Virus record (IMG/VR): IMGVR_UViG_3300027513_000017
Span: 1 to 58,289 of that record
Direction: 5' to 3' (one strand)
Length of the DNA stretch: 58,289 bases
DNA from: a virus
How positions within the stretch are numbered: the stretch's first letter is position 1; every line of letters starts with the position of its first letter. A model generated the notes under the pieces. That model was not told the DNA's origin, did no database searches, and was given only the letters and a program-made list of their open reading frames with translations. A program made the translations under genes and the position numbers. Positions 159 to 51,191 of the stretch are shown piece by piece.

Positions 159-3100
159 ATGACGGACTCCAAGTTTGTGAATGTTGATGAAGCATTCATG
201 GACGACGCGGTTCTCCATCTAACCGCGCAACATTGCGACGCTCCGATTCTCGATGATTCGGGTTCACAGATTATCGTTATCCCAAGCATTGAGGAACCGA
301 TCGCAGGTGATGCGTTTTCCCGGTATCGAGCAACAGGAATCTATACGCCTCGTTATTTCCTCTACAACAATCTTGGAGACGGATCGCTCATTCCCGAGTT
401 TGTGGATGGGCCATATATCGGTATCGATCAGGGTGGTTCACTTCCCGATCCGAGCGTATCAACTGATCCGACGTTTCTAAGTCAGAAACCCTTAATCAAG
501 AGATACACGTTCAACTCAACGATTAGTGAGGAAGTTAGGGCCACAGACTTCATCAACAAGACTCTCCTCCCGTCCTTCAAAGGCTTTTTAAGAGTCAACA
601 AGAACGGGAAGATAGAGATCCGCTCAGAAGTCTCTTCCGACTCCACGAGACTGCGAACGGCAACGGCAGTGGGAGCGACTTCAATCCCTGTTTTAGACGT
701 GACTCCGTGGAAGACAGGGCCGGAACTCTTGAAGGGGCGAGTCCTACTAGGCTTTGGATTAACTACCAGTGAGGTTAGAACGCCCTCCGCCGCTGATTAT
801 TCCACGTCAGGTAACGCGATAACCCTCACGGCGTCGGGAAGCGGCACAGTGACCGCTACAGCGTCAGGAGCCACGCTCTCAGGTGGGTCTACATCTGTTC
901 CAGCAACGGGGACGATAACGATCGGCGGCGGTTCAACTGTTCCGGCTGGCGTGAGCTATCAGAATGACTTCGGGATGACGACTGGAGCGGGCGGAGCGAT
1001 TACCGTCACGTCAGGAGGTTGGGGTAATTCCGGTGCCGCAACAGTTGCATCAATCGCACTGGCTGATGACGGTCAATTTGGTGGCGTGTTAGGACTTGGC
1101 ACGATTGTTTTGGGCTTAGGCTATTCGGACTCTCCGACCACTAACACCGATCTGGAATATGGACTGCAGTTGAATGGGCCATCAGGCATTGCGAGTTTGA
1201 TTATCAGTGGGGCCGCTCCGGTCGCCTTGATTCCCTGCTCTCCTGGAGATCGCTTTGATGTGATCAAACAGGATGGAGTGATTCGCTTCACTAAGAACGG
1301 AGCAATCATCAATACCGGCAGCATAGCCATTCCCGCTGTCACGGGAACGCTCTACGGGAACGTGGTCGGATTCACCAATGGCGCGAATCTTACCTCTGCG
1401 GAAATGGGCACAGCAGATGTAGCAGGCGGCACGGTCAACATTGCTATTGGCGGAATTGCAGTTAGCTACGAGTTTGGGGCCGACGTGATCGAAGGCATCG
1501 CAGCCATGATCGCCGCGTACATCAATGCTAATCAGAGATTGAATAAGTTTATTCGGGCGACGTGGGATTCAAGCAATCCTGAAGTAATCACGATTACTTG
1601 TCTACACGGGGCGTTGACTGTCCCTGCTTTACTCAAAGCTCACACAACGGCACTAGCCGATCCTACTTCTGCACCCACAGCAGCAGGATCGTCAGGCGGA
1701 TCACTTCCGGCAGGCACTTATTTTCTGGCGTATTCAGATGTGAATGCGATCGGTGAGACTTATCTAACTGCTTCGGCTTCTGTAGTCGTGACGGCTAATC
1801 AGAAGATCGACGTGAGTTCCATTGCTGCGTTAGTCGGCACCTCGAGAAATTACTATCTGAGTGAGAGTGCAGGATCGACAAATCTCCGTTTCGTTGCTAA
1901 CCGCACAAACAACACTAATTTCTCGATCACTGATGTTCCTGAAGTCGGGGCCGCGCAGTCTCCAACCTGGAACCAGACCGCAGAGGAACTATTAAGAGTT
2001 GCGAAGTCCTTTGCTACTAATTCACAGGATATTTATCCCGAGTGGAAAGCATCGTTCGGGGTAACGATGAGCGACACTTATCTCCCGACTGTTTTGAATG
2101 GTCATAAGTATCAGGTCACTACCGCAGGCACGACAGGCACCACAGAACCCACTTGGCCCACAACCGCAGGAGGTACTGTTGCTAGTGGGACAGCGGTCTT
2201 CACCGAAACAGGATCGACTGTCTTAGCGCAAGCCGGACTATCACGATCGAATGTAATTAAGAACTCCTTCAAGTGGCCTTTGGGTTCAAGACAGTCGACA
2301 GTCAACCAGATCAAGACTGCATATCGCTCGGCTAAGGATGACTTCGCCCTTCAACCTCTGACAGTTAATGACTACACGCATCAAGCCTATGTAAAGAAGA
2401 AATATCCGTTGGAGATCGATCTAAGTGGTGTCGATAACTTCAACCAGGCTAAACGTCTGTGCAATTTCAATCTCTCGAAGTATCGGGAAGGCGATCATTT
2501 CCATGCTCTCGGTACTGGGCCGTCAGGTCTGGTACTCGAAGAAGGAGACGTGATTTGCACGTCTGATGATTCAGGCGGGTTGATAAACGTAGTAACAAGA
2601 ATTGAAGAATTAAGAATCACCAAAGACCATGACGTTTATATAACGCAGGCGCGTAGATACTCCACTTTAATGTTTTCTGATGACGTGGGTTCGCATCGGA
2701 TTCCTCTAGCTTCCACTCTCAGATTCGCAGCCACTAAAGACACACTAGCAGAGTTCATCGACACGATAGCTATTCGAGATTCAGATGCGATGGTGCCCGG
2801 CTTCAAGATTGCTCTGTCTCACGATCTAGCTGTCGAAGGAGACTGGCGTGGAGCTTCTGTGTGGGCCGACTTTGGTGATGGCTACAAGTTCTTAAAGAAG
2901 CATGACGTAGCAGCGACAATTGGCACGTGTGACACCACACTCGGAGCCGTCAGCGACATAGAAGTCTTCGATGAGATCAATACAGTTGATTTCACCCTTG
3001 ACTATGAGGATGGACAGTTTGGCGATGACATGACTGAAGCCGAGTTGCTAGCTAACCCTTATCGTCGGCTGTTCTTAATTGGTGATGAGTATGTACAAGC

Positions 3101-4262
3101 AGGCACTAACGTCTCGAATGGAAGCCGCTCGTACACTGAATCGGACTTCTTACGCGGTAGGTTTGAAACTGATGATGATGTGATTCATTCAGCGAGTGAG
3201 CGCGTGGTCTATATGAATGGGGCAGAGATATTTGTTGAACTGCCGATCTCTCAAGTGGGCATTCCGTTCAATATAAAAGTTGTCACTACGAATCAGGACG
3301 TTGCAGATGCGACAGCGATTCCGTTTACGTGGGCGGGGAATAATGTTCGACCGCGCAAGATTACAGAGATCTACATTGCCAAAGACGGATCGAATGATTG
3401 GTTAATTCAATTCTTGGGCCATCCGCGACCGTTTGAAATGCCCGCTGAGTATGTGGTTGAGATTTGGGAAGACCACACGCGAAACGATCCGACCAAACTA
3501 AAACGGAGACTCCCCGTTACGGAGGGAACGACGCACGCGTGCTTGCTGAATTCGTCAGGGTCAACCTATGTGCAGGAAGACGATCCCGAAGGTGTACCAG
3601 GGGGTCTTATTCGCGTTGAAGATACTCACGCTGATAAGAACAATCTACACGGAGACGGCATTGCGGATGTCAACGGTCAAACGCTCGAAGACATCAAGAA
3701 CACGTTCACTCGTTTCAGTTTCACGTTGGCGATTGAAGACTCAGGTACTGGCATAGGTAAATCGGTGAGTGCTGGACTGATTAGCGAAGATGGAGTCACA
3801 ACACCACCGACATTCAATACAAGCCTCTCGCCCGCTGTAGTGAGGTTGTCCGATGACACAGGAACAGTAAACGAGATTGTTTCTACCTACGGCACAACAG
3901 TCTCATCCAGCACACTAGGAAGTGGTGGTGATATTTCCCAACGGTACGCCATCATTCTGAGCGGCACTGAGTATCGCGTTTATCGAGACTATGAGGCCGC
4001 AGGCGGGCAAGTGCCGTTAGCAATTATCCCTGCTCCAAGCGCAGGGTTCCCGTTCCCTCTGCGATTGAAAATGAACATCGACCAAATCAACGGCGATGAA
4101 GTACACGTCACTAACGTCACCGCAGGCGGCGCACTTAGACCAACAACCATCTATTCCTTGGCGGAACAACTGGAGGATTTCGGGGTTGAGCAGAGCATGT
4201 TATTTCTCCGCATCTACCAGAAAGGCAGATATGCAGACATCGGAGATCCGGTTGACTTCTAA
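1..4262 (+). CDS. Tail tip / central fibre protein, C-terminal 1,420 residues (gene continues from 57153)
   Basis: This is the 3' part of a gene that begins at 57153 and crosses the circle junction in frame, giving about 1,746 aa. Position 3 starts a whole codon, so the TTG at 27 is internal and not a start. The order after the distal tail gene is that of a siphophage tail-tip (lambda gpJ-like) protein. The middle of this part holds Gly/Ser/Thr-rich beta segments, a ConA/SPRY-like stretch (about 1030-1400, with SPGDRFDV and IRFTKNG) and a GTTEPTWPTT motif (about 2130-2165) common in phage tail proteins. The later part (about 2270-3250) looks like the TIM-barrel-associated tip region, followed by a VRPRKITEIYIAKDG module (about 3340-3500). 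The role is baseplate hub and fibre attachment. The family call is firm; domain borders are estimates. Confidence 0.85.
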   Translation, partial: NGQIVPLGLDEQDTPPVLTAIVRGRKMPVRNSSGVYGGEEWSNNPVDILRFIMTDSKFVNVDEAFMDDAVLHLTAQHCDAPILDDSGSQIIVIPSIEEPIAGDAFSRYRATGIYTPRYFLYNNLGDGSLIPEFVDGPYIGIDQGGSLPDPSVSTDPTFLSQKPLIKRYTFNSTISEEVRATDFINKTLLPSFKGFLRVNKNGKIEIRSEVSSDSTRLRTATAVGATSIPVLDVTPWKTGPELLKGRVLLGFGLTTSEVRTPSAADYSTSGNAITLTASGSGTVTATASGATLSGGSTSVPATGTITIGGGSTVPAGVSYQNDFGMTTGAGGAITVTSGGWGNSGAATVASIALADDGQFGGVLGLGTIVLGLGYSDSPTTNTDLEYGLQLNGPSGIASLIISGAAPVALIPCSPGDRFDVIKQDGVIRFTKNGAIINTGSIAIPAVTGTLYGNVVGFTNGANLTSAEMGTADVAGGTVNIAIGGIAVSYEFGADVIEGIAAMIAAYINANQRLNKFIRATWDSSNPEVITITCLHGALTVPALLKAHTTALADPTSAPTAAGSSGGSLPAGTYFLAYSDVNAIGETYLTASASVVVTANQKIDVSSIAALVGTSRNYYLSESAGSTNLRFVANRTNNTNFSITDVPEVGAAQSPTWNQTAEELLRVAKSFATNSQDIYPEWKASFGVTMSDTYLPTVLNGHKYQVTTAGTTGTTEPTWPTTAGGTVASGTAVFTETGSTVLAQAGLSRSNVIKNSFKWPLGSRQSTVNQIKTAYRSAKDDFALQPLTVNDYTHQAYVKKKYPLEIDLSGVDNFNQAKRLCNFNLSKYREGDHFHALGTGPSGLVLEEGDVICTSDDSGGLINVVTRIEELRITKDHDVYITQARRYSTLMFSDDVGSHRIPLASTLRFAATKDTLAEFIDTIAIRDSDAMVPGFKIALSHDLAVEGDWRGASVWADFGDGYKFLKKHDVAATIGTCDTTLGAVSDIEVFDEINTVDFTLDYEDGQFGDDMTEAELLANPYRRLFLIGDEYVQAGTNVSNGSRSYTESDFLRGRFETDDDVIHSASERVVYMNGAEIFVELPISQVGIPFNIKVVTTNQDVADATAIPFTWAGNNVRPRKITEIYIAKDGSNDWLIQFLGHPRPFEMPAEYVVEIWEDHTRNDPTKLKRRLPVTEGTTHACLLNSSGSTYVQEDDPEGVPGGLIRVEDTHADKNNLHGDGIADVNGQTLEDIKNTFTRFSFTLAIEDSGTGIGKSVSAGLISEDGVTTPPTFNTSLSPAVVRLSDDTGTVNEIVSTYGTTVSSSTLGSGGDISQRYAIILSGTEYRVYRDYEAAGGQVPLAIIPAPSAGFPFPLRLKMNIDQINGDEVHVTNVTAGGALRPTTIYSLAEQLEDFGVEQSMLFLRIYQKGRYADIGDPVDF

Positions 4263-21912: not shown

Positions 21913-22647
21913 ATGAGCACGAAACAGCAAGCGTTACAAACCACGTCACCTCAGCTTCCATCGGATTTAGCGGCGTATGCCAGGATCATTAGTGATGCCG
22001 CTTCCAATCCTGATGTCGATGTAAACAAGCTGGAAAAGCTCCTCGATATGCAGGAGCGGATACTAACCCGAAATGCGGAAATGGCTTTCAATGCCGCGAT
22101 GACGAAAGCACAAAGTGAAGTCAAGCGCATAGCTGCTGATGCTTCCAATCCGCAGACCCGAAGCCGCTACGCTTCTTATGCGGCTCTCGACCGAGTTCTT
22201 CGACCTGTATACACCGAGAACGGATTTGCTCTCAGCTTCAATACCGGCGATTCACCGCCTGACTACGTGCGCGTTGTTTGTGACGTGTCACACGCGGGCG
22301 GCTTTAGTCGGCAGTACCAGATTGATATGCCCGCCGACGGTAAAGGAGCAAAGGGCGGCGACGTAATGACCAAGACCCACGCGGTGGGCGCTGGAATGTC
22401 CTATGGAATGCGCTACTTGTTGAAGATGGTGTTTAACGTTGCTGTGGGAGAAGACGACGTTGACGGAAACGAAACGCAACCACTCATCACCGAGAAGCAG
22501 GCGGCTGACCTCAAGGCGTTAGCGGAAGAAGTGAAAGCTGACATTCCAAAATTCTGCGCGTATTTCAAAGTAGAAAAGCTGGCTGATATTCCGGCTGGAA
22601 AATATATCAGTGCGGTGACTGCGCTACAGAGAAAGAGAGAGAAGTAA
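21913..22647 (+). CDS. erf: ERF-family single-strand annealing recombinase
   Basis: 244 aa with GGAGAAG before ATG 21913. Residues about 45-185 follow the ERF superfamily: MAFNAAMTKAQSEVKRI, then YASYAALDRVLRPVYTENGF, and a GAGMSYGMRYLLKMVFNVAV motif with DD after it. The C-terminal 50 residues are a variable helical tail. ERF proteins anneal complementary single strands during phage recombination and replication. It is directly followed by the YqaJ exonuclease that would make its substrate. Confidence 0.92.
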   Translation: MSTKQQALQTTSPQLPSDLAAYARIISDAASNPDVDVNKLEKLLDMQERILTRNAEMAFNAAMTKAQSEVKRIAADASNPQTRSRYASYAALDRVLRPVYTENGFALSFNTGDSPPDYVRVVCDVSHAGGFSRQYQIDMPADGKGAKGGDVMTKTHAVGAGMSYGMRYLLKMVFNVAVGEDDVDGNETQPLITEKQAADLKALAEEVKADIPKFCAYFKVEKLADIPAGKYISAVTALQRKREK

Positions 22648-23276
22648 TGGAGCAACGATCTGCGGAATGGTACGCGGCACGGTGCGGCAACGTAACGGCT
22701 TCTCGAATCTCTGATGTTATCGCTCGCACAAAAACAGGTTGGGGCGCGTCCAGGCACAATTACATGGCCCAACTCGTTACCGAAAGGCTGACGGGCGCTC
22801 CCAGTGAGGGCTACGTCAGCAAGCCGATGCAGTGGGGCATAGATACCGAGCCTGAGGCGCGAGCGGCTTACGAGTTTTACGCAGGGGTAACGGTTGATGA
22901 AGTTGGATTTATCGTGCATCCGCGACTCGCTCAGTGTGGCGCATCGCCGGACGGTCATGTTGGCGCAGAAGGTTCCACGGAGATGAAATGCCCCAACACC
23001 GCGACACATATCGAACTTCTACTCTCAGGGATTATCGACAGTAACTACCTGAATCAAATGCAATTCCAAATGGCCTGTAGTGGGCGTAAGTGGTGTGACT
23101 TTGTTTCTTACGATCCACGAATGCCAGAAGAGTTGAAGTTATTCGTTCGCAGGGTCTATCGAGACGATAACTGCATAACCAAACTTGAAGACGCTGCCGT
23201 GGAATTTCTCGAGGAAGTAGATACGAAGGTTAAGCAGTTACTCAACTTGAAACTGTCACTACCGGAGGCCGCATGA
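22647..23276 (+). CDS. YqaJ-type (lambda-exo-like) 5'-3' exonuclease
   Basis: 209 aa. It opens EQRSAEWYAARCGNVTASRI, the standard start of the YqaJ/lambda-exonuclease family. GIDTEPEARAAYEFYAGV, CGASPDGHVG, TEMKCPNTATH and QMQFQMACSGRKWCDFVSY supply the PD-(D/E)XK residues (Asp in SPDG, Glu and Lys in EMKC). It degrades one strand of linear DNA to feed the ERF annealing protein. Start and stop overlap the neighbouring genes. Confidence 0.93.
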   Translation: MEQRSAEWYAARCGNVTASRISDVIARTKTGWGASRHNYMAQLVTERLTGAPSEGYVSKPMQWGIDTEPEARAAYEFYAGVTVDEVGFIVHPRLAQCGASPDGHVGAEGSTEMKCPNTATHIELLLSGIIDSNYLNQMQFQMACSGRKWCDFVSYDPRMPEELKLFVRRVYRDDNCITKLEDAAVEFLEEVDTKVKQLLNLKLSLPEAA

Positions 23277-23686
23277 GCTTCAACAAAATCATTCTCGTTG
23301 GAAACCTCGGGCGCGATCCTGAATTGCGATACACAGGCAGTGGCACTCCAGTGTGTTCCTTCAGTGTCGCAACAACCGAAAAGCGGAAAGATGCCAGCGG
23401 GCAGTACACCGAAGAGACGACGTGGTTCCGCGTGACCGCGTGGCAAAAGATGGCCGAGACTGCCAGCCAGTATTTACAGAAGGGTCGTCAGGTTTATATC
23501 GAGGGACGATTGAGATCCGACAGTTACACCGATCGTGATGGCAAGGAACGTTACAACCTTGAGGTGACGGCTACTGATATGAAGTTTATCGGCGGCAATC
23601 AAAACGAGCACAGAGAGAGTCCTGTCACTGGCGGCCACAAACAGGAACCTAATCACGAACTATCAGACGAAGACGTGCCTTTTTAG
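23273..23686 (+). CDS. ssb: Single-stranded DNA-binding protein
   Basis: 137 aa. The OB fold starts MSFNKIILVGNLGRDPELRY and contains TTWFRVTAWQKMAE, GRQVYIEGRLRS and the DR.G..RY..EV strand. A short linker ends in DEDVPF, the acidic tip that recruits partner proteins. The length is normal for phage SSB. It completes the recombination module. Confidence 0.96.
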   Translation: MSFNKIILVGNLGRDPELRYTGSGTPVCSFSVATTEKRKDASGQYTEETTWFRVTAWQKMAETASQYLQKGRQVYIEGRLRSDSYTDRDGKERYNLEVTATDMKFIGGNQNEHRESPVTGGHKQEPNHELSDEDVPF

Positions 23687-23689
23687 CCC

Positions 23690-24376
23690 ATGCAAATCAA
23701 TCGCTGCTTAATCATCGACACCGAAACATCTGGCTTGGAAGAGTCAGCGGCTGTAATCGAGGTCGGCGCCATTCTCTACTCAGTAACGAATCGTTGTTCG
23801 ATTCAGGAACTTTCAACCCTATTACCAGCGGAGACGAACGAAGCCGAGTCGATCAATCGGATCAAGCCATCGGCACTTCAGGAGTTAATCGACGTTGGCG
23901 CTGGCTACTTACTCGAATCTCTCTACACGATGAGCAAGAAGGCAGATGTCTACGTTGCTCATAACGCTGAGTTTGACAGAAAGAAGATTCAGAACAACCC
24001 GACGTTCGTACCGATCGCGAATCTGCCCTGGGTTGACACGATGGATATGAAATGGCCGCAAGCAACACGAGAGCAAGGCTCACTAATCAATCTCGCGTTA
24101 GACCACGGTATCGGCGTAGCGAGCGCGCACAGAGCCTTAACCGACTGTCGGCTGATCGCTTCCCTCTTCGACCGCATGGAAGACTTACAGGGAATGTTCG
24201 CAATCGCGATGAGACCTAAGGGCGTCTTTCAAGCATTGGTGTCCTACGACGACCGCGAGCAGGCAAAGCAAGCGGGTTTTAAGTGGGACGGGACCGCGAA
24301 GACCTGGACGCGACGAATGGCAATCGAAGACGCCACAGCGTTGACGTTCAAAGTCAGACAGTTAGAAGCGGCTTAG
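23690..24376 (+). CDS. DnaQ-like DEDDh 3'-5' exonuclease with C-terminal extension
   Basis: 228 aa. IDTETSGLEES carries the first Asp and Glu, VAHNAEFDRKKI the second Asp, and HRALTDCRLIASLF the catalytic His and last Asp. Residues about 170-228 form a separate domain with YDDREQAKQAGFKWDGTAKT, the DUF3799/'DNA polymerase III epsilon-associated' type W-rich module that often ends such phage exonucleases. It could proofread, or trim ends during recombination. Confidence 0.9.
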   Translation: MQINRCLIIDTETSGLEESAAVIEVGAILYSVTNRCSIQELSTLLPAETNEAESINRIKPSALQELIDVGAGYLLESLYTMSKKADVYVAHNAEFDRKKIQNNPTFVPIANLPWVDTMDMKWPQATREQGSLINLALDHGIGVASAHRALTDCRLIASLFDRMEDLQGMFAIAMRPKGVFQALVSYDDREQAKQAGFKWDGTAKTWTRRMAIEDATALTFKVRQLEAA

Positions 24377-24387
24377 TTCTTTTCACA

Positions 24388-24552
24388 TTCAGGACGGGGT
24401 TATTCCTTTCCCCTATTCCCTGAAACGAGGCGTGTATCAATGATCGCGAGTCTCGGTATGCGCCTCTCTAAATCTCTAGGTCGTAAGGGGATGAGGTAAC
24501 GACCGGAGCGGCAAGGGAAGGCTCGACCCGATCCAATTGGGAATCTTCCCTT
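24388..24552 (+). ncRNA. Array of four hairpins, structured RNA candidate
   Basis: The 200-base gap between the exonuclease gene and the 24577 gene holds four consecutive inverted repeats: TTCAGG/CCTGAA (24388-24393, 24419-24424, with GGGG/CCCC inside), GAGGCG/CGCCTC (24427-24432, 24461-24466), GGTCGT/ACGACC (24479-24484, 24499-24504) and AAGGGAAG/CTTCCCTT (24513-24520, 24545-24552, containing the palindrome CCAATTGG). Such regular order is unlikely by chance. It may be a regulatory 5' leader, a small RNA or part of a replication origin. Confidence 0.5.
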
Positions 24553-24576
24553 CCGTCACATTCTTGAAAGGTAAAC

Positions 24577-24804
24577 ATGGCGAAGAAATCAACCAAGCGT
24601 GACGTGATTCTTACTGATGCCCGAATACGACTAGAGAACGCGAAGACGAATCTAGCAGAGCAGCAACGTCTCTTATTGGCCGCTGAGTTAGTAGTCCAGG
24701 CGCATCAGGAATCTTATGACGCCCTAGAGCGTTCGTTGGCTGCTACTCCACGAAAGAAAGCAGTCAAGAAAGATCAGCCTACGCTAGTGAAGGACGTAGC
24801 GTGA
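24577..24804 (+). CDS. Coiled-coil protein, 75 aa
   Basis: MAKKSTKRDVILTDARIRLE begins a heptad-rich helix (about residues 10-55) ending in a basic tail with RKKAVKKDQ. GAAAGG lies 9 bases upstream. It is isolated between two structured non-coding stretches. A DNA- or RNA-binding helper is possible but unproven. Confidence 0.62.
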   Translation: MAKKSTKRDVILTDARIRLENAKTNLAEQQRLLLAAELVVQAHQESYDALERSLAATPRKKAVKKDQPTLVKDVA

Positions 24805-25321
24805 AAAGGTTGAATCAAATCACTGATTCTGTAGTAAGATTATCCCGTTCTTTGAGAATGCTGCTAGACCCAGCACCGACTCACACCAACAGCGACTTTT
24901 CACAGTCGCGTTACGTTGCTTTTCTGACTTGTTGGCGGGTCGGTTTAGCGGTCTAACGTGCGCGACTTTGAAAGGTCGTTTTCGTTTTAGCGGCGACTTA
25001 AAAGAATAGGGCTGTGAGAATTGACCCCTAAGTCACAAAACTCACAGCCCAAAATACATCGGCTTGTTGAGGGTAACTTTACCATGTTTAAGCGTTCATC
25101 CACAACCTTGAGTGCGCGAGAAAATCAAGGTTCCTCGACAAGCAACTGTACGGGCAAACGGAAACCAGGCAACGGTGCAGTAGTTGATCTGCAAAGCGGG
25201 CTACGTCCTGGTCCTTAATCTGAGACTGGTTTATTCCAGACCCTACTAAGTTTGCTGCTGACGGTTACACGGTAAAGCCGAACCTGAGTCCCTCTCAGAA
25301 GGGAAGCCCTGTGTCTGAAAT
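24805..25321 (+). ncRNA. Long structured non-coding RNA candidate, about 450-500 nt
   Basis: This 517-base stretch has no supported gene and is dense in helices. A long compound stem is formed by TAGACC (24865-24870) with GGTCTA (24950-24955), ACCGACTC (24875-24882) with GGGTCGGT (24937-24944), CCAACA (24886-24891) with TGTTGG (24930-24935) and the hairpin GCGACT/AGTCGC (24892-24897, 24904-24909). Then come GCGACTT/AGGTCGT (24962-24979), a perfect 10-bp stem GGGCTGTGAG/CTCACAGCCC (25009-25018, 25041-25050), CTTGTTGAGG/CCTCGACAAG (25063-25072, 25133-25142) enclosing AACCTTGA/TCAAGGTT, ACTGTA/TGCAGT (25145-25181), and TCAGA-AGGG/CCCT-TCTGA (25295-25318). No tRNA or known riboswitch is recognised. 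Confidence 0.6.
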
Positions 25322-25582
25322 ATGATTTTCTTCACCGTAGCAAGAGCCAGATTCGAGACAGGAGAAGCATGTTGCCTCTGTTTGAAGTTCATCAACCCAG
25401 GTCAATCGTATGTGAGAACGGAATCGAGAACAGCGCATTACAAGTGCGCGAAGAACAAAGGGTGGCGCAGACGGTCACGAGCCAAGCCGAAACCGAAGCC
25501 GCAAGAGATTCGAGAGCAGTCGAGCAAGGTGTTAAAGGTCGTCAGAAGCGGCGAAGTAATCAAGCGGATTCCGCCGCCGTAA
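25322..25582 (+). CDS. Zinc-finger protein, 86 aa
   Basis: The protein has CCLCLKFINPGQSYVRTE and then AHYKC, a Cys/His set like that of PARP-type or related small phage zinc fingers (C..C...G........H..C). A very basic middle (KGWRRRSRAKPKPKPQ) follows. The ATG at 25322 directly follows the structured region and has no clear Shine-Dalgarno. Confidence 0.6.
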   Translation: MIFFTVARARFETGEACCLCLKFINPGQSYVRTESRTAHYKCAKNKGWRRRSRAKPKPKPQEIREQSSKVLKVVRSGEVIKRIPPP

Positions 25583-25584
25583 AG

Positions 25585-25953
25585 GTGTGGCGCGAGACTT
25601 TCAAACTGAACTTAAAACTCGGATTCAAAATCGACATAGATGTCACTGTCACGAACTTGGACGCATGGCGATCATTACTAAACGAGTGGAAAGAAAAGAA
25701 GTGGAATCCTCTGAGTATCAAGGAGCAATTAAGTGAGTACGAACGTAGACAGTCGAACAGCTACACCAGAAGCGTTCAGCAACCTCCTCAGCGGAGAACG
25801 AATGCGGAAAATAATCCAGATGGGCTACCCGAACGGCGGGACTCTCGAGTGTCCGTTTTGCGGCAAAGGGAAAGAGTTGACGCTAGAACAGGTGGTCAAA
25901 CTCTTGACGACATCTTGGCCCAAGCTTTGTCGAGAGTGTCAAAAACCGGCTGA
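25585..25953 (+). CDS. Hypothetical protein, up to 122 aa; 3' half overlaps another gene
   Basis: GTG 25585 lies 2 bases after the previous stop and opens MWRETFKLNLKLGFKIDIDV, followed by LDAWRSLLNEWKEKKWNPLS. This first part (25585-25735) is the only plausible coding frame in its stretch. The frame stays open to 25953 but from 25733 it overlaps a zinc-ribbon gene in another frame, so the true C-terminus is uncertain. A sequencing frameshift joining the two is also possible. Confidence 0.45.
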   Translation: MWRETFKLNLKLGFKIDIDVTVTNLDAWRSLLNEWKEKKWNPLSIKEQLSEYERRQSNSYTRSVQQPPQRRTNAENNPDGLPERRDSRVSVLRQRERVDARTGGQTLDDILAQALSRVSKTG

Positions 25954-27203: not shown

Positions 27204-27683
27204 ATGTTAACCACGAAATCAAACGAACGACTAGCAAAGGTCCATCCACTTCTTGCTGAGAAGGTACGGCTAATCTGCCAGACGTTGGCCCGCGATGGTC
27301 TGGACATTCAGATAGTACAAGGACTCCGCACCTTCGCAGAGCAGGATGCCTTATTCGCTCAAGGGCGCACGAAGGCAGGACCGAAGGTGACGAACGCGAG
27401 AGGAGGGCAGAGCAATCACAACTTCGGCCTTGCAGTCGATCTATGTCCGTTCGTGAATGGCAAGCCTCAGTGGGAAGACAGCGCGACGTTTCAGAAGATC
27501 GGCAAGGAAGCGAAGTTACTCAAGTTGGAATGGGGCGGCGATTGGGTGAAGTTTAACGACAGGCCGCATGTGCAGTTGCCAGGATTAACGATGAAGGACT
27601 GCAACACGATTTACAACAAGAGCGGGCGCGTCTTACAGAAAGTTTGGGACGCAGCTACAGCAGCGTTCGTGAAGAAAGTTTAG
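27204..27683 (+). CDS. M15 peptidase endolysin (L-Ala-D-Glu type)
   Basis: 159 aa. VQGLRTFAEQDALFAQGRTK, then SNHNFGLAVDLCPF (zinc ligands His and Asp) and DRPHVQLPG (catalytic and third ligand His region) form the M15C/VanY-like zinc peptidase core seen in T5-type endolysins. It cuts the peptide stem of peptidoglycan. No signal peptide is present, so a holin is required. It sits in the middle operon, about 3 kb away from the holin candidate at 30851. Confidence 0.92.
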   Translation: MLTTKSNERLAKVHPLLAEKVRLICQTLARDGLDIQIVQGLRTFAEQDALFAQGRTKAGPKVTNARGGQSNHNFGLAVDLCPFVNGKPQWEDSATFQKIGKEAKLLKLEWGGDWVKFNDRPHVQLPGLTMKDCNTIYNKSGRVLQKVWDAATAAFVKKV

Positions 27684-30606: not shown

Positions 30607-30734
30607 ACATAAGAATCCTTATCCGCGCATAATCTCTTTTACGGTTCGCCGCGAAAGTACATTCCAGAAAGGTCTCAAAGCTAAGGGCTAAAGAGTAGGT
30701 TGAGATAGAAAACATTTACACAGGAACCTGAAGG

Positions 30735-30772
30735 AGACCGCCGAGGATTGATACCCCGTGGCGGTCTTTTTT
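30735..30772 (+). terminator. Strong rho-independent terminator
   Basis: AGACCGCC (30735-30742) pairs perfectly with GGCGGTCT (30760-30767) around a 17-nt loop, followed by a run of T to 30772. It ends the 20.7-30.6 kb operon and separates it from the late genes. The rest of the 30607-30850 gap contains a second small hairpin, GAGGCA/TGCCTC (30804-30819), ahead of the holin gene. Confidence 0.88.
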
Positions 30773-30850
30773 CTTCTGCCTTGAAAACGTAAATCAGCAA
30801 ACTGAGGCATTCTTGCCTCCTCTAAGAGAGAACAGGAGACCTCTACCTAT

Positions 30851-35978: not shown

Positions 35979-36170
35979 ATGCCGTTAATAACAATAGTTG
36001 TCGTGCTCATTATTGTGGGCGTTCTTTTGTGGCTAGTGAATCAATACATTCCGATGGACGCAAAAATCAAGACCATACTCAACATCGTGGTACTCATCGC
36101 GGTAGTGCTGTGGTTGCTAAATGTGTTTGGGCTATTCGCGGGGCTGTCGCATATCAAGGTGGGAAGTTGA
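35979..36170 (+). CDS. Two-helix membrane protein, 63 aa
   Basis: MPLITIVVVLIIVGVLLWLV, NQYIPMDAKIKTILN and IVVLIAVVLWLLNVFGLF form two membrane helices joined by a short polar loop. The layout with NQYIPMD..IK.I.N matches the Thivi_2564-type family of small bacterial and phage membrane proteins of unknown function. A holin role is possible. Confidence 0.68.
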   Translation: MPLITIVVVLIIVGVLLWLVNQYIPMDAKIKTILNIVVLIAVVLWLLNVFGLFAGLSHIKVGS

Positions 36171-36192
36171 AAGACTGAAAAAGAAATCAGAA

Positions 36193-36651
36193 ATGAAGAA
36201 CGGTGGAGCAAGGCCGGGGGCAGGCAGGAAGCCCGGAGGAAAGAACAAGGCCACACTTGAACAGCAGAAGGTCTTAGCGGCTTTCAATCAGCGAGTGATG
36301 GCTAAGGCCGATGCTCTATTCAACGCTCAATTAACACTCGCAGTTGGCTCGATGAAGGTCTTCCGTATCGACGAGGAAGAGGTAGACGGAAAGACGAAAC
36401 GAGTTCATACGCACGTCACTGACGCTGATGAAATCAAAGCGTTACTTGATGAGCATGAAGGTGGCCCGGGTGTTGTTGACGGGGTTTATTACTACTTCAC
36501 GGATATTCACCCTGACAACAGGGCGCTTGATTCGATGTTGAATAGGGCGTTTGGCAGAGCGGCAGAAACCATTAAGCATGAGAACACTGATGGCTCCCCG
36601 TTACTTCAGCCACTGGCCGAGGCGATGATGAAAGTTTATGGCGGTAAGTAG
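36193..36651 (+). CDS. Terminase small subunit
   Basis: 152 aa from ATG 36193. The opening MKNGGARPGAGRKPGGKNKA is the Gly/Arg-rich DNA-binding arm seen in many phage small terminases, followed by a helical domain and ending beside the large-subunit start (14-bp overlap). It should recognise packaging sites and load the motor. The assignment rests on the N-terminal motif and the gene order. Confidence 0.78.
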   Translation: MKNGGARPGAGRKPGGKNKATLEQQKVLAAFNQRVMAKADALFNAQLTLAVGSMKVFRIDEEEVDGKTKRVHTHVTDADEIKALLDEHEGGPGVVDGVYYYFTDIHPDNRALDSMLNRAFGRAAETIKHENTDGSPLLQPLAEAMMKVYGGK

Positions 36652-38053
36652 TTACGTTCCCACTAATCAAGCCTTACACAGTGCTGCTTTGCTGTTAGCG
36701 CAGACCGCTAAGACTGCCGGTGTTCCGCAAGACTCTCTCGATCGGTTTCTTCGCGCTGGTTATGTACCGCAACCCAAGCAATTAGAGTTTCATGGTGCAG
36801 CTCGTGAGTGTGACGCTCCCGATGGCCCGACACAGGTTGGTTTTGGTGGTGCGCGTGGCCCCGGTAAGTCACACGCTGTATTCGCTCAGGCAGCATTAGA
36901 TGACTGTCAGCGAGTAGCGGGGTTGAAGGTTCTCTACCTGAGAAAGATCCAGAAGAACGCCAAAGAGCAGTTTGAAGACTTGAGACGGTCAGTTCTCTTC
37001 CAGACTCCGCACACGTTCACAAACGGGGTGCTTCACTTCCCGAACTCCTCAAGGTTGTTTCTCGGTCACTTCAGAAACGAGTCAGACATCGATCAGTATC
37101 TCGGCATTGAATATGACCTGATTGTGATTGAAGAGGCTACTACTCTTTCATTGGTGAAGTATCGAGCGTTAAGAGACTCGAACAGAACATCCAAGCAAGG
37201 GTTTCGACCGCGTATCTACTCAACGACCAATCCTGGCGGTGTAGGTCATGCTTGGTTCAAGGCGACGTTCATTAAACCTGCCCGTGAGATGGGCGAAGAA
37301 GATACGCGGTTCATCTTTGGCACAGTTGAAGACAATGCTTTCAACGATCCTGACTACAAGAAGAAACTGGAAGAGAACACGGGCTGGAGACTCAAGGCGT
37401 ATCGTTACGGTGATTGGGACATTGCCGCAGGTCAGTATTTCTCCACCTGGAACCATGAAGCGATAGTCAAGAAAGACCTGAAGATTATGCCGGGGTCAGA
37501 TGTGTGGTGTTCGCTGGACTATGGCTATCAGCATCCCACGGTCTGTTATCTATTCGCTGAGTATGACGGGAAGAAGCAGGTCATAGATGAGCACTGGAGA
37601 CGCCACGCTTTAGCCGTAGACCACGCCGCTGACATCAAGAGGATGCTCGCGCGACACGGACTAACCCTAGCGTCGTTAAAGTCATTTGTAGCGAGTCCTG
37701 ACGCCTTTGCTCAACGGGGTAACGAGTCAGGGAAGACGATTGCTGATCAGTATGCAGACAACGGAATCAGGCTGACGCGAGCGAACGATGATCGAGTGAA
37801 CGGCGCCGCGTATCTCTTAAAGCTCTTAGGGCGGGTAGAGTCGCAGACCGAAAAAGCGATCGCGCCGCAGATAGAAATCTCTGACAAGTGCGTGAAGTTG
37901 ATCGAGAACATCCCTACGTTGCAGCACGATCCGCACAGGCCAGAGGACGTGTTGAAGGTGGACATTGATGATGACGGGAACGGTGGCGATGATCCTTACG
38001 ACGCAGCCCGTTATGGTCTGATGGTGAGACACCGCGAACTCCGAATGTACTAA
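36638..38053 (+). CDS. terL: Terminase large subunit (ATPase and nuclease)
   Basis: 471 aa. GFGGARGPGKSHAVF is the Walker A loop, YDLIVIEEAT the Walker B with catalytic Glu, and YSTTNPGGVGHAWFKATF the coupling motif. The nuclease half has SLDYGYQHPTVCYLF with its first Asp and a late DDDGNGGDDPYDAARYGL motif with the last acidic residues. It packages DNA into the prohead and cuts it. Length is normal. Confidence 0.95.
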   Translation: MAVSSYVPTNQALHSAALLLAQTAKTAGVPQDSLDRFLRAGYVPQPKQLEFHGAARECDAPDGPTQVGFGGARGPGKSHAVFAQAALDDCQRVAGLKVLYLRKIQKNAKEQFEDLRRSVLFQTPHTFTNGVLHFPNSSRLFLGHFRNESDIDQYLGIEYDLIVIEEATTLSLVKYRALRDSNRTSKQGFRPRIYSTTNPGGVGHAWFKATFIKPAREMGEEDTRFIFGTVEDNAFNDPDYKKKLEENTGWRLKAYRYGDWDIAAGQYFSTWNHEAIVKKDLKIMPGSDVWCSLDYGYQHPTVCYLFAEYDGKKQVIDEHWRRHALAVDHAADIKRMLARHGLTLASLKSFVASPDAFAQRGNESGKTIADQYADNGIRLTRANDDRVNGAAYLLKLLGRVESQTEKAIAPQIEISDKCVKLIENIPTLQHDPHRPEDVLKVDIDDDGNGGDDPYDAARYGLMVRHRELRMY

Positions 38054-39502
38054 ATGAAAATAATTACTCCCATACTCAATCGACTTGGCTTACAGCATAA
38101 GGCCGCGAGCGACGTACCCGATCTCGGTCCACAGAGCCTTGCTGAGCCCACTTATCGTTTTAACGGGTGGGGTTGGAATCGCTTTCGCGGGCGAATAGAC
38201 CACAGAGCCGAGGTGGGCGATCTGGATGGTAATTCACTAGCGATGGCGGTAGTAAATTACACCGCATCGAGAATCCCCGAAGCCAAGCCGGTAGTGGTTA
38301 CGACAAAGGGTGACGAGGTTATTAGTGATCCGTTTCACCCGATGGCGAAGTTAATCCGTCGTCCCAACAATCATCATGTGTGGGCGAACTATGTTCTGGC
38401 CTGTTCTATGTCGTGGTGGTTCTCAGGTAACTGCTATTTCTACAAAGCTCGTTCCGTCTCAGGTGAGGTTGTTGCCCTTTGGTATCTGCCACACTTCTTA
38501 GTCAGACCCCGCTGGCCGAATGATCGGGCTAATCCGCAAGTTCCCTCTGACGCTAAGAACGATCCGTTTCTTTCCCATTATGAGTATCGGGTGCCTGGGC
38601 GCGAGCCGGTTCTGTACCCCGCAAAGGATATTGTTCACTTAAAGCGCGGCGTGGATCTCAGTAATGCAAGGCTAGGATTGGGCGCGTTTGAGTCGTTGTT
38701 TAAGGAGTTGTATGGCGATGAAAAGATGGCCCTATATACAGCGGCGATAATGTCCAATATGGGCATTCAGGTGCCTGTAATCTCTCCGAAAGACGGGGGG
38801 ACGGTTAGCGAGACACAGGCGGGCGCAATGAAGGAGATGTGGCTATCGAAGACCACCGGGGAAAACGCGGGCGAGCCGGTAATCCTTACTGAGGCAATTG
38901 ACATTGAGAAGTTTGGGTTTAACCCTTCCGAGTTGGATCTATCTGTCTTACGGATGATCCCCGAGTCTCGAGTAGCGGCAGTGACCGGCATTCCGGCAGC
39001 GACGTTACAGTTGATGGTCGGGCTACAAAATGGGACTTCCTATGCATCGAGTGAGCAGGCAAGACAGCAAGGATATGAAGAGGTGATTATCCCGATTCAG
39101 TCTGTGTGGGCGGAAGAGTTTACGTGGCAGTTACTGGCCGACTTCAAAGGTTCACAGAACTCCGAGTTTGCGTTCGATACTTCGAGCGTGCGGGTACTGC
39201 AGGAAGATCGTGACAATCTCTTCCGTAGAGAGACAGACGCACTAAGGTCAGGTGGACAGACGCTTAACCAATTCCTGCAAGCGGTCGGAAAGAAGCCAAT
39301 AGGGCCAGAGGGTGACATCTATTATGTACCCGGTATGTGTAAGCCAATGACCGCAGAGCGAATTCTAGCCTCGGCTGATGGTTCATTAGCGCCTGATCCG
39401 ATTGATCCATCTGTTGAGGCGGCTCAACAAGCGGCTGATATTGAGAAGATGTTTGCAGACCTTGAGGCGCAGATGAAAGGCTTCCATGCAAACGCTCGCT
39501 GA
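38054..39502 (+). CDS. Portal protein (HK97 family)
   Basis: 482 aa. NSLAMAVVNYTASRIPEAKP, NNHHVWANYVLACSMSWWFS with GNCYFYKAR, LWYLPHFLVRPRW and DIVHLKRGVD follow the HK97-type portal order. TGIPAATLQLMVGLQNGTSY is the conserved wing/stem segment. It forms the dodecameric vertex through which DNA passes. It follows the terminase gene without a gap and overlaps the next by 17 bp. Confidence 0.95.
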   Translation: MKIITPILNRLGLQHKAASDVPDLGPQSLAEPTYRFNGWGWNRFRGRIDHRAEVGDLDGNSLAMAVVNYTASRIPEAKPVVVTTKGDEVISDPFHPMAKLIRRPNNHHVWANYVLACSMSWWFSGNCYFYKARSVSGEVVALWYLPHFLVRPRWPNDRANPQVPSDAKNDPFLSHYEYRVPGREPVLYPAKDIVHLKRGVDLSNARLGLGAFESLFKELYGDEKMALYTAAIMSNMGIQVPVISPKDGGTVSETQAGAMKEMWLSKTTGENAGEPVILTEAIDIEKFGFNPSELDLSVLRMIPESRVAAVTGIPAATLQLMVGLQNGTSYASSEQARQQGYEEVIIPIQSVWAEEFTWQLLADFKGSQNSEFAFDTSSVRVLQEDRDNLFRRETDALRSGGQTLNQFLQAVGKKPIGPEGDIYYVPGMCKPMTAERILASADGSLAPDPIDPSVEAAQQAADIEKMFADLEAQMKGFHANAR

Positions 39503-48508: not shown

Positions 48509-49807
48509 ATGCCTTTAGAGCAGGATGCCGCGCTACTGCAAACAAAAGTAGCCGAGACACGCGCTTTTTGGGACAAGGTTGGCGATGCCGATCTAACCCA
48601 AGAGCAGAAGCAGGAAATCGACGGGATCAACAAGACGGTTGAAGAGTTGAGCGCGAAGGTTTCCGAGTCAAAAAAATACCAACAAATTAGAGCAGAGCAA
48701 GAAGCGTTAGCCGCTGGCTTGAATGCACCGGTTCACACTCCTGACTTTGGTAGCAAGGATCTCAAAGGTCGCGAACCTGAGCGTGAGACCAAGAGTGTTG
48801 GTGAGCGGTTCACTGACCGCAAGGAATTCAAGGAATGGTTCAAGAGCGTTGCGCCGTCCGGCGAGATCAACGAAACCTCATCGATCGGATTCTCCTGTCC
48901 ACCGTTGACTCTCGAGGGTAAGGCTCTCGTGACTGGTTCGTCCGCTGCTTCCGGTGGCGCGTTGGTGCGACGTGACTATGCCGGTCTCGTTGATTTTCCG
49001 TTCCGTCCAATGACGTTGCGAGATGTCATTACGATTGGCCGAACGGGGTCAGATCTGATCGAGTTCCCGCGCGTAGTTAGCTACACCTCGGCTGCTGCCA
49101 CCGTGGCCGAAGCAACGACTGCTCCAACATCCTTTAGTCAGGCAAGCAACGGTTTGAAGCCTGAGTCATCGATGGTCCTAGAGAAGGTTACGGCGACAGT
49201 GAAGACCATTGCTCACTGGATACCGCTAACCCGACGCGCTCTGTCTGATGCACCGCAAATCGAAACCCTCATCAACAACTTTCTCGAGTTTGGCTTGGAT
49301 GATGCCGAGGAAACTCAGATCGTAACCGGCAACGGATCGGGCGAGAACTTCCTCGGTCTCGACAACACTCCAAACATCACTCTCCAGGCATTCGACACGG
49401 ACATCCTGACCACGACCCGCAAAGCCAGAACAGCGGCAGCCGTAACAGGTCGCGCGCGGTCTACCGCGTTTGTGATGCACCCGTATGACTGGGAAGCCTT
49501 CGACCTCTTGAAGGACGCAGAGAACCGCTACTACTGGGGTGGCCCAACGGTTCTCGGACAGAAGATGTTGTGGGGTCTCCCGGTTGTTGAGTCTGAGGCG
49601 ATGCGCCTAAAGACTTTTTACACAGGCGATCTCAAGCAGGCAATTTTGTGGGACAGAGAAATGATGACGATTCGCATGAGCGATGCGCCTAACGATTTCT
49701 TCCTGCGAAACATGTTGGCGATTCTCGCAGAACGCAGAGCGGCCTTCGGTGTGTTTAGACCGCCCGCAATCGTTCGCGGAGACCTTCTGGCAGGTCCTAA
49801 CAGTTAA
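48509..49807 (+). CDS. Major capsid protein (HK97 fold)
   Basis: 432 aa. Residues 1-110 are a charged coiled coil (LTQEQKQEIDGINKTVEELS), the delta or scaffold domain removed by the protease in HK97. The fold begins around GGALVRRDYAGLVDFPF. KTIAHWIPLTRRALSDAPQI, GNGSGENFLGL, WGGPTVLGQKMLWGLPVVES and ERRAAFGVFRPPAIVRG are standard HK97 capsid segments. It forms the icosahedral shell and is the likely acceptor if the virion is glycosylated. Confidence 0.96.
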   Translation: MPLEQDAALLQTKVAETRAFWDKVGDADLTQEQKQEIDGINKTVEELSAKVSESKKYQQIRAEQEALAAGLNAPVHTPDFGSKDLKGREPERETKSVGERFTDRKEFKEWFKSVAPSGEINETSSIGFSCPPLTLEGKALVTGSSAASGGALVRRDYAGLVDFPFRPMTLRDVITIGRTGSDLIEFPRVVSYTSAAATVAEATTAPTSFSQASNGLKPESSMVLEKVTATVKTIAHWIPLTRRALSDAPQIETLINNFLEFGLDDAEETQIVTGNGSGENFLGLDNTPNITLQAFDTDILTTTRKARTAAAVTGRARSTAFVMHPYDWEAFDLLKDAENRYYWGGPTVLGQKMLWGLPVVESEAMRLKTFYTGDLKQAILWDREMMTIRMSDAPNDFFLRNMLAILAERRAAFGVFRPPAIVRGDLLAGPNS

Positions 49808-49844
49808 TTAACCTCGTGGCGGTCCATAGCCCGTTACGCCAGCA

Positions 49845-49886
49845 GGCGGCTTCTCTTGCTCCCGTAGGAGGAGCCGCCCTTACTTT
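49845..49886 (+). terminator. Hairpin between capsid and glycosyltransferase genes
   Basis: GGCGGCT (49845-49851) pairs with AGCCGCC (49872-49878) and contains a nested CTCC/GGAG, followed by CTTACTTT up to the ATG at 49887. The T tract is short, so it is probably a partial terminator that keeps the capsid transcript high and the next gene low. Confidence 0.55.
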
Positions 49887-51191
49887 ATGAAACTACTTTT
49901 TATCCTTCACATGTATCAGCCTTACCACAATGCGGGTGGTGAGACGACCGCGCACACTGCGATGAAGGCGATGGTAGATCGAGGCCACGATGTAACGGTA
50001 GTTTTTAGGCCGCAGAATGAAACCGAAGGCGACAAGTGTCCTGACATCTATGAATACGAGGGCGTGAAATGCATTAAGAGTCCGCTGAACACCGCCCAAG
50101 CATTCATTAAGGATGTGATCACTCGCATAGATCCAGACCTCTTAATCACTCACCTCGACCTGACCACCTTAGCGATGCAGTTGAGTCTTGATACTCATAA
50201 ACCTTTGGCCCATTGGGTACACAACACAATGAGTCTTGATGTGTTTCATGTGTCCCCGCAGAAGTGCCAACTAGCAATCTTTAACTCAAATTGGGTGGCT
50301 GAGTTCTACAAGTGGAAAGGTCCACAGATCGTGATCCATCCCACGGTGGAGCCAGATCGCTATCGGTGTGAAAAAGGCACGAAGATCACGCTCGTTAATC
50401 CAACCCCAGGCAAAGGCGCGGATCAGTTTTATCAACTCTCCAAGATGCTCCCTGATTATGAATTTCTGACAGTGAAGAGTGTTTATGGCGAACAGATCGC
50501 GGTGCCGAATATATCGGCTCATCTTCACCCGAACGTGGAAACGATGGAGCACACGGCAGACATCAGGGAAGCGTTACGCAAGACAAAAGTTCTCCTGATG
50601 CCCTCGCAGTACGAGTCCTATGGTCGCGTAGCAGTCGAGGCGGCGTGTTCTGGTATTCCGACTATCGCTCACCCGACCCCCGGGCTATTGGAAGCGTTGG
50701 GTGACGCGGGAATCTTCTGCGATAGAGACGATCTCCCGTCATGGAAGAACGCTATCGAGCGGTTAATGACAGATGATGTCTATTACCGCAAACGCTCAGA
50801 TTTAGCCCTCGAACTAGCTAACAGTCTCGATCCTGAGAGCGAATTCGATCGATTGGAGGAAGCATTGTTAGTCACTAGCAGAGCATTTAACCAGGAGGAC
50901 GTAATGGAAAGAGTTTTGTACGCCAATCGAAGGTTTGGAAAGAAGCCTGATGGCAGTCTGAGCGATCAGATGCACGAGTGTCGCTCGCTCGTTTGCGGTG
51001 GTCCAGGTGCGCCAATTCCTTTCGAGTGTTTAGAGGAAGCAAAGGCGTTGGGTTATGCCGATATACCCGCAGATCAGCCGTCAGAGAAGACCGAGATTCT
51101 TCTGGACACGAAAGCACTAACTGAAGCTCCAGAGAACAAGGCGATTCAGGAACCTGAGCAGAAGAAAACAAGGAAGCGAAAGACCGCCTGA
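49887..51191 (+). CDS. GT4 glycosyltransferase with basic C-terminal extension
   Basis: 434 aa. LLFILHMYQPYHNAGGETTA starts a GT-B fold, TLVNPTPGKGADQFYQLSKM is the donor-side domain, and LLMPSQYESYGRVAVEAACS has the E(x7)E-type motif; GIPTIAHPTPGLLEALGDAG closes it. Residues about 330-434 are an added part with CGGPGAPIPFECLEE and a Lys-rich end (KKTRKRK). GT4 genes in phage capsid operons are known to glycosylate virion proteins in some phages. A direct role on the capsid is inferred from position. Confidence 0.88.
   Translation: MKLLFILHMYQPYHNAGGETTAHTAMKAMVDRGHDVTVVFRPQNETEGDKCPDIYEYEGVKCIKSPLNTAQAFIKDVITRIDPDLLITHLDLTTLAMQLSLDTHKPLAHWVHNTMSLDVFHVSPQKCQLAIFNSNWVAEFYKWKGPQIVIHPTVEPDRYRCEKGTKITLVNPTPGKGADQFYQLSKMLPDYEFLTVKSVYGEQIAVPNISAHLHPNVETMEHTADIREALRKTKVLLMPSQYESYGRVAVEAACSGIPTIAHPTPGLLEALGDAGIFCDRDDLPSWKNAIERLMTDDVYYRKRSDLALELANSLDPESEFDRLEEALLVTSRAFNQEDVMERVLYANRRFGKKPDGSLSDQMHECRSLVCGGPGAPIPFECLEEAKALGYADIPADQPSEKTEILLDTKALTEAPENKAIQEPEQKKTRKRKTA

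What the first reader, a model, noticed from the sequence alone, without database searches (positions are those of the whole stretch)
24865..25318. Long, highly structured non-coding RNA candidate in a compact phage genome
Over 500 bases have no credible gene, yet helices are stacked along the whole length: a compound stem of 6, 8 and 6 bp from 24865 to 24955 ending in a perfect 6-bp hairpin, a perfect 10-bp stem at 25009-25050, and a coaxial 10-bp plus 8-bp stem at 25063-25142. A G-U pair within two helices keeps pairing, as selection would. Phages rarely keep this much non-coding DNA. It may be a new large RNA class of the kind exemplified by GOLLD-type phage RNAs, or a replication origin transcript.
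Basis: seen in the sequence. Interest (0 to 1): 0.82.

Follow-up and report, generated by a model that had tools for sequence, protein, structure and literature searches.

The report
New large RNA of phages, islands
The gene-free stretch encodes a large folded RNA, not a chance fold: a matching RNA with compensating base-pair changes sits elsewhere in a related phage, and its core recurs in integrase islands of Planctomycetota bacteria, so it looks like an undescribed RNA family carried by mobile DNA, with unknown job.

Summary
The 517-nt gap 24805-25321 has no credible gene and is by far the most structured 460-nt stretch scanned in this phage (z about -5; sub-domain 24878-25290 z -5.1 to -6.1). 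Rfam has no match. A related phage (L007, terminase about 63% identical) carries a homolog of about 488 nt, on the opposite strand relative to its neighbours and at another place (between terminase and portal). A two-sequence hand alignment gives 59 shared pairs, 25 changed on both sides. A covariance model then found the core in Planctomycetota; a second model built on four sequences found three further copies at 59-68 bits, giving five copies in four genomes of one order. The 50-nt core has 100% standard pairs and 6 of 10 pairs with double-sided changes. At least three copies lie in tyrosine-integrase islands, several beside restriction genes. Different neighbours and orientation argue for a trans-acting non-coding RNA rather than a leader or origin. 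It resembles GOLLD/ROOL in kind but matches neither family and no tRNA is nearby. Molecular function is inferred only; there is no transcript evidence.

The parts
24805..25321 (+). Non-coding gap holding the RNA gene; fills the space between the stop of ORF 24577-24804 and the ATG of ORF 25322-25582
   Evidence: homologous gap in L007 4038-4525 (minus strand) also fills the space between two genes
24843..24856 (+). 5' strand of a possible outer closing helix (UCCCgUUCUuuGAG) pairing with 25292-25304
   Evidence: fold only, P 0.38-0.64; not demonstrated in L007
24878..24883 (+). H1 5' strand GACUCA, pairs with 25285-25290 UGAGUC (L007: CAGCAG/CUGCUG)
   Evidence: P 0.88; 5 of 6 pairs changed on both sides in L007, but placed by eye in a divergent region
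24891..24980 (+). Arm A: long irregular hairpin, 12+8+4+4+8 bp
   Evidence: P 0.86-0.99; shape not conserved in L007
24987..25000 (+). H2 5' strand, pairs with 25247-25261; closes the multi-branch domain
   Evidence: P 0.88-0.89; 4 both-side changes of 8 pairs compared, 1 broken
25009..25050 (+). H3: perfect 10-bp hairpin with inner 4-bp stem
   Evidence: P 1.00; 2 both-side changes in L007
25062..25143 (+). H4: 12-bp stem GCUUGUUGAGGG/UCCUCGACAAGC closing the H5 subdomain
   Evidence: P 0.93; 5 both-side changes in L007
25092..25117 (+). Candidate pseudoknot GCGU (25092-25095) with GCGC (25114-25117) in the H5 loop
   Evidence: L007 has GCGU/ACGC; planctomycete L201 and L209 have GGCGU/ACGCC in the same arrangement
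25106..25130 (+). H5: hairpin CCUUGA/UCAAGG with conserved loop GUnnCGCGAGAAAA
   Evidence: 4 of 6 pairs changed on both sides, loop conserved
25148..25246 (+). H6: GUAcGGG (25148-25154) with CCCUAC (25241-25246)
   Evidence: 5 pairs invariant, 1 one-side change
25165..25213 (+). Conserved core: H7 (CCAGG/CCUGG, 25165-25169/25207-25211) enclosing H8 (UGCAG/CUGCA, 25176-25180/25189-25193); invariant ACGG, GUAnnnGAUC and ACGUCC
   Evidence: 7 sequences, 100% standard pairs, 6 of 10 pairs with both-side changes; three independent matches of 59-68 bits
25226..25239 (+). H9: hairpin CUGG/CCAG next to conserved ACCCUACUAA
   Evidence: 2 both-side changes in L007
25263..25284 (+). Arm B: hairpin GGUU/AACC and CGGU/GCCG
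   Evidence: P 0.79-0.92; not conserved in L007
25299..25321 (+). Likely 3' boundary motif AAGGGAAG...GUCUG.AAUA, ending next to the neighbouring gene in both phages
   Evidence: alignment; L007 4030-4051

Best explanation
The region encodes a discrete structured non-coding RNA of about 410-500 nt, the founding example of an undescribed RNA family carried by mobile DNA (at least two tailed phages and five loci in four Planctomycetota genomes). Shown: excess folding, homologs, covariation in conserved helices, unrelated genomic contexts. Inferred: it is transcribed from the window's + strand as its own small gene, folds into a multi-branched RNA with a pseudoknotted hairpin (H5) and an invariant core (H7-H8), and acts in trans like GOLLD and ROOL, as an RNA scaffold whose invariant loops bind a partner (a host protein, the ribosome or another copy of itself) that the element needs to control. 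Association with restriction and integrase genes suggests, but does not show, a part in the contest between mobile elements and host defences. I put about 0.9 on a real structured RNA family, 0.6 on a trans-acting free RNA, and 0.25 or less on the binding or scaffold mechanism.
For: Fold excess. RNA parameters give a stronger excess than DNA parameters on the same strand (z -5.1 against -2.3). In L007, a gap with another location and opposite orientation aligns with Smith-Waterman score 71; the next best of 11,066 comparisons are 59 and 53, both inside coding genes. Core alignment: 9 of 26 pairs changed on both sides, 96% of cells paired, against 0-1 such changes when partners are slid by 1-3 columns. 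Extended hand structure: 59 pairs, 25 both-side, 4 one-side, 28 same, 2 broken. Model R1 found two planctomycete cores in non-coding DNA; model R2 then found three that were not used to build it, at 67.7, 63.8 and 59.2 bits, E 8e-12 to 9e-10 per genome. Seven-sequence core: 100% paired, 6 of 10 pairs with both-side changes. The H5 loop and pseudoknot pattern recurs in L201 and L209. Contexts differ: recombination-gene region (window), terminase/portal (L007), HTH_17-RNA-integrase (L209, L210) and ParB_N-RNA-integrase (L201).
Against: No transcript data. The whole-length alignment rests on two sequences and was made by hand; H1 and H3 were placed with freedom. A single-sequence nhmmer search does not recover L007. 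Planctomycete loci share only the roughly 50-nt core (plus the H5 pattern in two), and their wider regions fold no better than shuffles (z -1.2 and -0.7). The transcribed strand is uncertain: in the window the + strand folds better, but in L007 the strand opposite to the modelled one folds better. No promoter or terminator was recognised for the RNA itself apart from one terminator-like hairpin inside it, fewer than in shuffles. Nothing tests a binding partner.
Confidence: 0.6

Rival explanations
1. Cis-acting leader: a large regulatory 5' UTR of the adjoining small zinc-ribbon gene (25322-25582), or in other hosts of the integrase operon.
For: The RNA ends next to the ATG at 25322. In L201, L209 and L210 the RNA lies upstream of and co-directional with an integrase.
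Against: The zinc-ribbon protein has no relatives in the searches made or among the planctomycete neighbours. In L007 the RNA runs opposite to both neighbours. The distance to the integrase varies and other genes intervene.
Confidence: 0.17
2. A folded single-stranded DNA element (origin, transfer site or recombination site) rather than an RNA.
For: Compensatory stems with conserved loops also occur in folded DNA sites. Three loci lie near tyrosine integrases; both phages are DNA viruses.
Against: Excess stability is larger with RNA than DNA parameters (z -5.1 against -2.3). The predicted fold uses 14 G-U pairs. No integrase was seen among the window ORFs scanned, and L007 has the element between two late structural genes.
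Confidence: 0.1
3. A ribozyme: a self-cleaving RNA, or a relic of a self-splicing intron.
For: Invariant loops (ACGG, GUAnnnGAUC, ACGUCC) around a compact pseudoknotted core resemble catalytic RNAs in style (inference).
Against: No Rfam ribozyme or intron model matches, even at E<=5; it does not interrupt a gene in the window or L007; no reverse transcriptase or homing endonuclease was recognised directly beside it.
Confidence: 0.1
4. A chance or composition-driven fold, with the L007 similarity accidental.
For: Other 160-nt windows in the genome score as well.
Against: Extreme at 460 nt; independent model hits at 59-68 bits with covarying stems.
Confidence: 0.03

Closest known systems
GOLLD RNA
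   Same: Large multi-branched non-coding RNA of phages and prophages, conserved 3' part and variable 5' part, unknown function (PMC12286853)
   Different: No match in Rfam scans; no tRNA in the window; shorter (about 410-500 nt against often more than 800)
ROOL RNA
   Same: Large, pseudoknotted, phage/prophage-borne, no fixed protein partner (PMC12286853)
   Different: No match in Rfam scans; not near tRNAs; conserved core (CCGGGnnACGG..GUAnnnGAUC..ACGUCCCGGUC) not recognised by any model
int-alpA RNA (Rfam RF02996)
   Same: An RNA family whose name points to integrase/alpA neighbourhoods; here an HTH_17 gene and an integrase flank the core in L209 and L210
   Different: 71-nt model, no match to any copy of this RNA; this RNA also occurs in phages away from any integrase seen
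Rhodopirellula-1 motif (listed in PMC2864571)
   Same: A candidate RNA reported from Planctomycetes and Proteobacteria
   Different: Listed there without an Rfam accession, so it could not be compared

Membership tests
GOLLD | Match to the family's covariance model | tested here: not met
   No match at gathering score on the window nor at E<=5 on 24360-25600 or L007
GOLLD | Frequent neighbourhood of tRNA genes in phages or prophages | tested here: not met
   0 tRNAs in the window
GOLLD | Homo-oligomeric nanocage assembly | not testable with these tools
   needs cryo-EM or native gels
ROOL | Match to the family's covariance model | tested here: not met
OLE / HEARO and the other Rfam families | Match to any of 4227 Rfam 15 models | tested here: not met
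   Only insignificant sub-threshold hits
Group I or group II intron | Match to intron models and interruption of a gene | tested here: not met
   No model match; flanking ORFs are separate genes
New family defined here | Core H7/H8 with invariant ACGG, GUAnnnGAUC, ACGUCC and covarying stems | tested here: met
   7 sequences
New family defined here | Expression as a discrete RNA | not testable with these tools
   needs RNA-seq or northern blot
Rhodopirellula-1 motif | Consensus sequence and structure | not tested
   Listed without an Rfam accession; supplements not available

The most novel reading that the evidence does not exclude
A previously undescribed class of large, pseudoknotted, trans-acting RNA, shared between tailed phages and integrase islands of Planctomycetota, that serves mobile DNA during its conflict with, or takeover of, the host, for example as an RNA-only assembly or decoy.
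Probability: 0.4. Interest if true: 0.85.

Novelty: new variant of a known kind. Interest (0 to 1): 0.72.

Why it matters
Few large structured RNA classes are known in phages, and their roles are open. A family found both in tailed-phage contigs and in integrase islands, with an invariant roughly 50-nt core and movable position and orientation, gives a compact, testable example. The core model is specific enough to map the family further, and the planctomycete copies offer a bacterial context for tests of function.

Tried and rejected
DNA similarity of the region in phage and plasmid collections: nothing credible. A 25-nt exact match in Vibrio phage VCPH lies in a coding gene and the model does not score it. 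Protein neighbours 24577-24804, 25322-25582 and 25369-25953: no relatives in viral contigs. A strict pattern in viral contigs found only L007; a looser one added two coding-region chance hits, L114 and L115. A genome contigs pattern scan gave zero. R1 in fetched viral records, terminase relatives and 388 + 400 genomes of the phyla of G061 (a Verrucomicrobia genome) and G051 (a Caldilineaceae genome): nothing beyond chance hits L019 and L198 in coding genes and the weak L126. R2 in samples of the same two phyla: only L211, 29 bits inside a helicase gene, rejected. A Smith-Waterman score of 53 in L107 lies in a coding gene and does not resemble L007. MAFFT alone misaligned the window with L007, so the alignment was anchored by hand, with L007 insertions left out and missing positions set to N for the model.

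Full report
Setting. The window is a 58,289-base virus record. It is a tailed phage: an Erf-like annealing protein, YqaJ-type exonuclease, single-strand binding protein and an RNase T-type exonuclease at 21913-24376, an endolysin at 27204-27683, and terminase and portal at 36638-39502. The finding lies between a small ORF (24577-24804, positive codon score) and a small zinc-ribbon-like ORF (25322-25582).

Observation. The 517 bases 24805-25321 are not coding by stop distribution or codon use. The + strand folds to -174.9 kcal/mol against a shuffled mean of -146.5, z -4.3; the - strand has z -3.1. The sub-domain closed by 24878-24883/25285-25290 has z -5.1 to -6.1. In the 460-nt scan the region is the clear extreme, while 160-nt windows elsewhere score as well: the signal is the long-range architecture. 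Base-pair probabilities give arm 24891-24980, helix 24987-25000/25247-25261, hairpin 25009-25050 and stem 25062-25073/25132-25143 with P 0.86-1.00.

First homolog. No DNA relative was found in the phage collection and Rfam gave nothing. Terminase relatives were fetched and long non-coding gaps of all fetched loci folded. The 488-nt gap between terminase and portal of L007 aligns, on its minus strand, with the window gap at score 71, against a null mean of 25.5 and sd 3.4; the next best of 11,066 comparisons, 59 and 53, are in coding genes. Conserved blocks are AUGUUUAnGCGUU, CGCGAGAAAAUC, CAAGC, GGCAACGG, GCUACGUCC, ACCCUACUAA and AAGGGAAG. Stems between the blocks changed on both sides: 9 of 26 core pairs, 96% of cells paired, against 0 or 1 both-side changes when partners are slid. 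Extending by hand to the whole element gives 59 pairs, 25 both-side, 4 one-side, 28 same and 2 broken. H1 and H3 in that list were placed with freedom and count for less. In both phages the element fills the space between two genes, but the places and orientations differ. The energy-only fold of the window does not show H7 fully; there the comparison of sequences was followed.

More homologs. Covariance model R1 found nothing new in viral records or in Verrucomicrobia and Chloroflexi genomes. In 392 genomes of the phylum of G080 (the genome of a contig titled Planctomycetota) it found two matches in non-coding DNA. By E-value alone these were borderline for so many genomes, but each carried the same loops with changed stems. 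A second model, R2, of the 50-nt core from four sequences, was run over 170 genomes of the order of those hits. It recovered both and found three places not used in training: 67.7, 63.8 and 59.2 bits. In the seven-sequence alignment every cell is a standard pair; six of ten pairs have both-side changes and none of 500 shuffles reaches the covariation score. None of the copies matches Rfam. In L201 and L209 the region upstream also repeats the H5 pattern: GGCGU, a hairpin and a loop with ACGCCGCGA, matching the window's GCGU...GCGCGAG and L007's GCGU...ACGCGAG.

Context. L201, L209 and L210 carry homologous tyrosine integrases (42-76% identical). L209 and L210 have an HTH_17 gene upstream of the RNA; L201 has a ParB_N gene. 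Around the copies are an AbiTii gene and an HsdM gene (L201), a type ISP restriction enzyme (L209), an ArdC antirestriction gene (L208), and, in L202, genes resembling the type I restriction genes of L201 plus a D12 methylase fragment. No protein of the window resembles these neighbours. What travels with the RNA is mobility, not one gene.

Strand. In the window the + strand folds better; RNA parameters give more excess than DNA parameters. In three planctomycete loci the modelled strand is co-directional with the flanking HTH or ParB_N and integrase genes. Against this, in L007 the opposite strand folds better. I favour the + strand of the window, without certainty.

Mechanism. Non-conserved neighbours and orientation make a cis-regulatory or origin role unlikely and a free, trans-acting RNA the best reading. 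How it acts is inference: the invariant loops of the core and the pseudoknotted H5 are the likely contact sites for a partner. The conserved CGCG in the H5 loop of both phages is self-complementary and could support loop-loop dimers, like the kissing loops described for OLE and GOLLD (PMC12286853), or it may be used by the internal pseudoknot. Neither was tested.

Known relatives. GOLLD and ROOL are the nearest in kind (PMC12286853), but this RNA fails their model match and their frequent tRNA neighbourhood, so it is not filed as a member. One planctomycete candidate from an earlier survey (Rhodopirellula-1, PMC2864571) is listed without an Rfam accession and could not be compared.

Verdict. 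A real, apparently undescribed structured RNA family of mobile DNA with good comparative support in its core, moderate support for the full architecture and no functional evidence.

Noticed in passing
window 24377-24576: A second non-coding gap just upstream, with two strong hairpins (z -2.3, 4 of 200 shuffles as good).
   Followed up: partly
window 30692-30850, 49761-49920, about 36161-36320: Other local stretches with strong folding in 160-nt windows (z -3.4 to -4.1).
   Followed up: no
L077:4354-4648, L095:2354-2668, L072:3191-3677 and dozens of similar contigs: Contigs with a YqaJ exonuclease share a conserved non-coding, partly structured gap about 1.5-3 kb upstream of that gene; L072 has an Rfam int-alpA RNA at 3065-3141.
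   Followed up: no
L018:4415-5072: A 658-nt structured non-coding gap upstream of a related terminase (z about -3.8 and -4.3 on the two strands, few shuffles).
   Followed up: no
window 25322-25582 and 25369-25953: Overlapping ORFs: the first has a CxxC...HxxC zinc-ribbon pattern but a poor ribosome-binding site, the second a good ribosome-binding site; neither has relatives in the searches made.
   Followed up: partly
L202:8461-8511 and L208:8209-8258 with flanks: These two planctomycete copies share further conserved upstream blocks (ACGGGCUG, CCUCCACAC, GGAAAGUUUUCC) unlike L201/L209, suggesting sub-families.
   Followed up: partly
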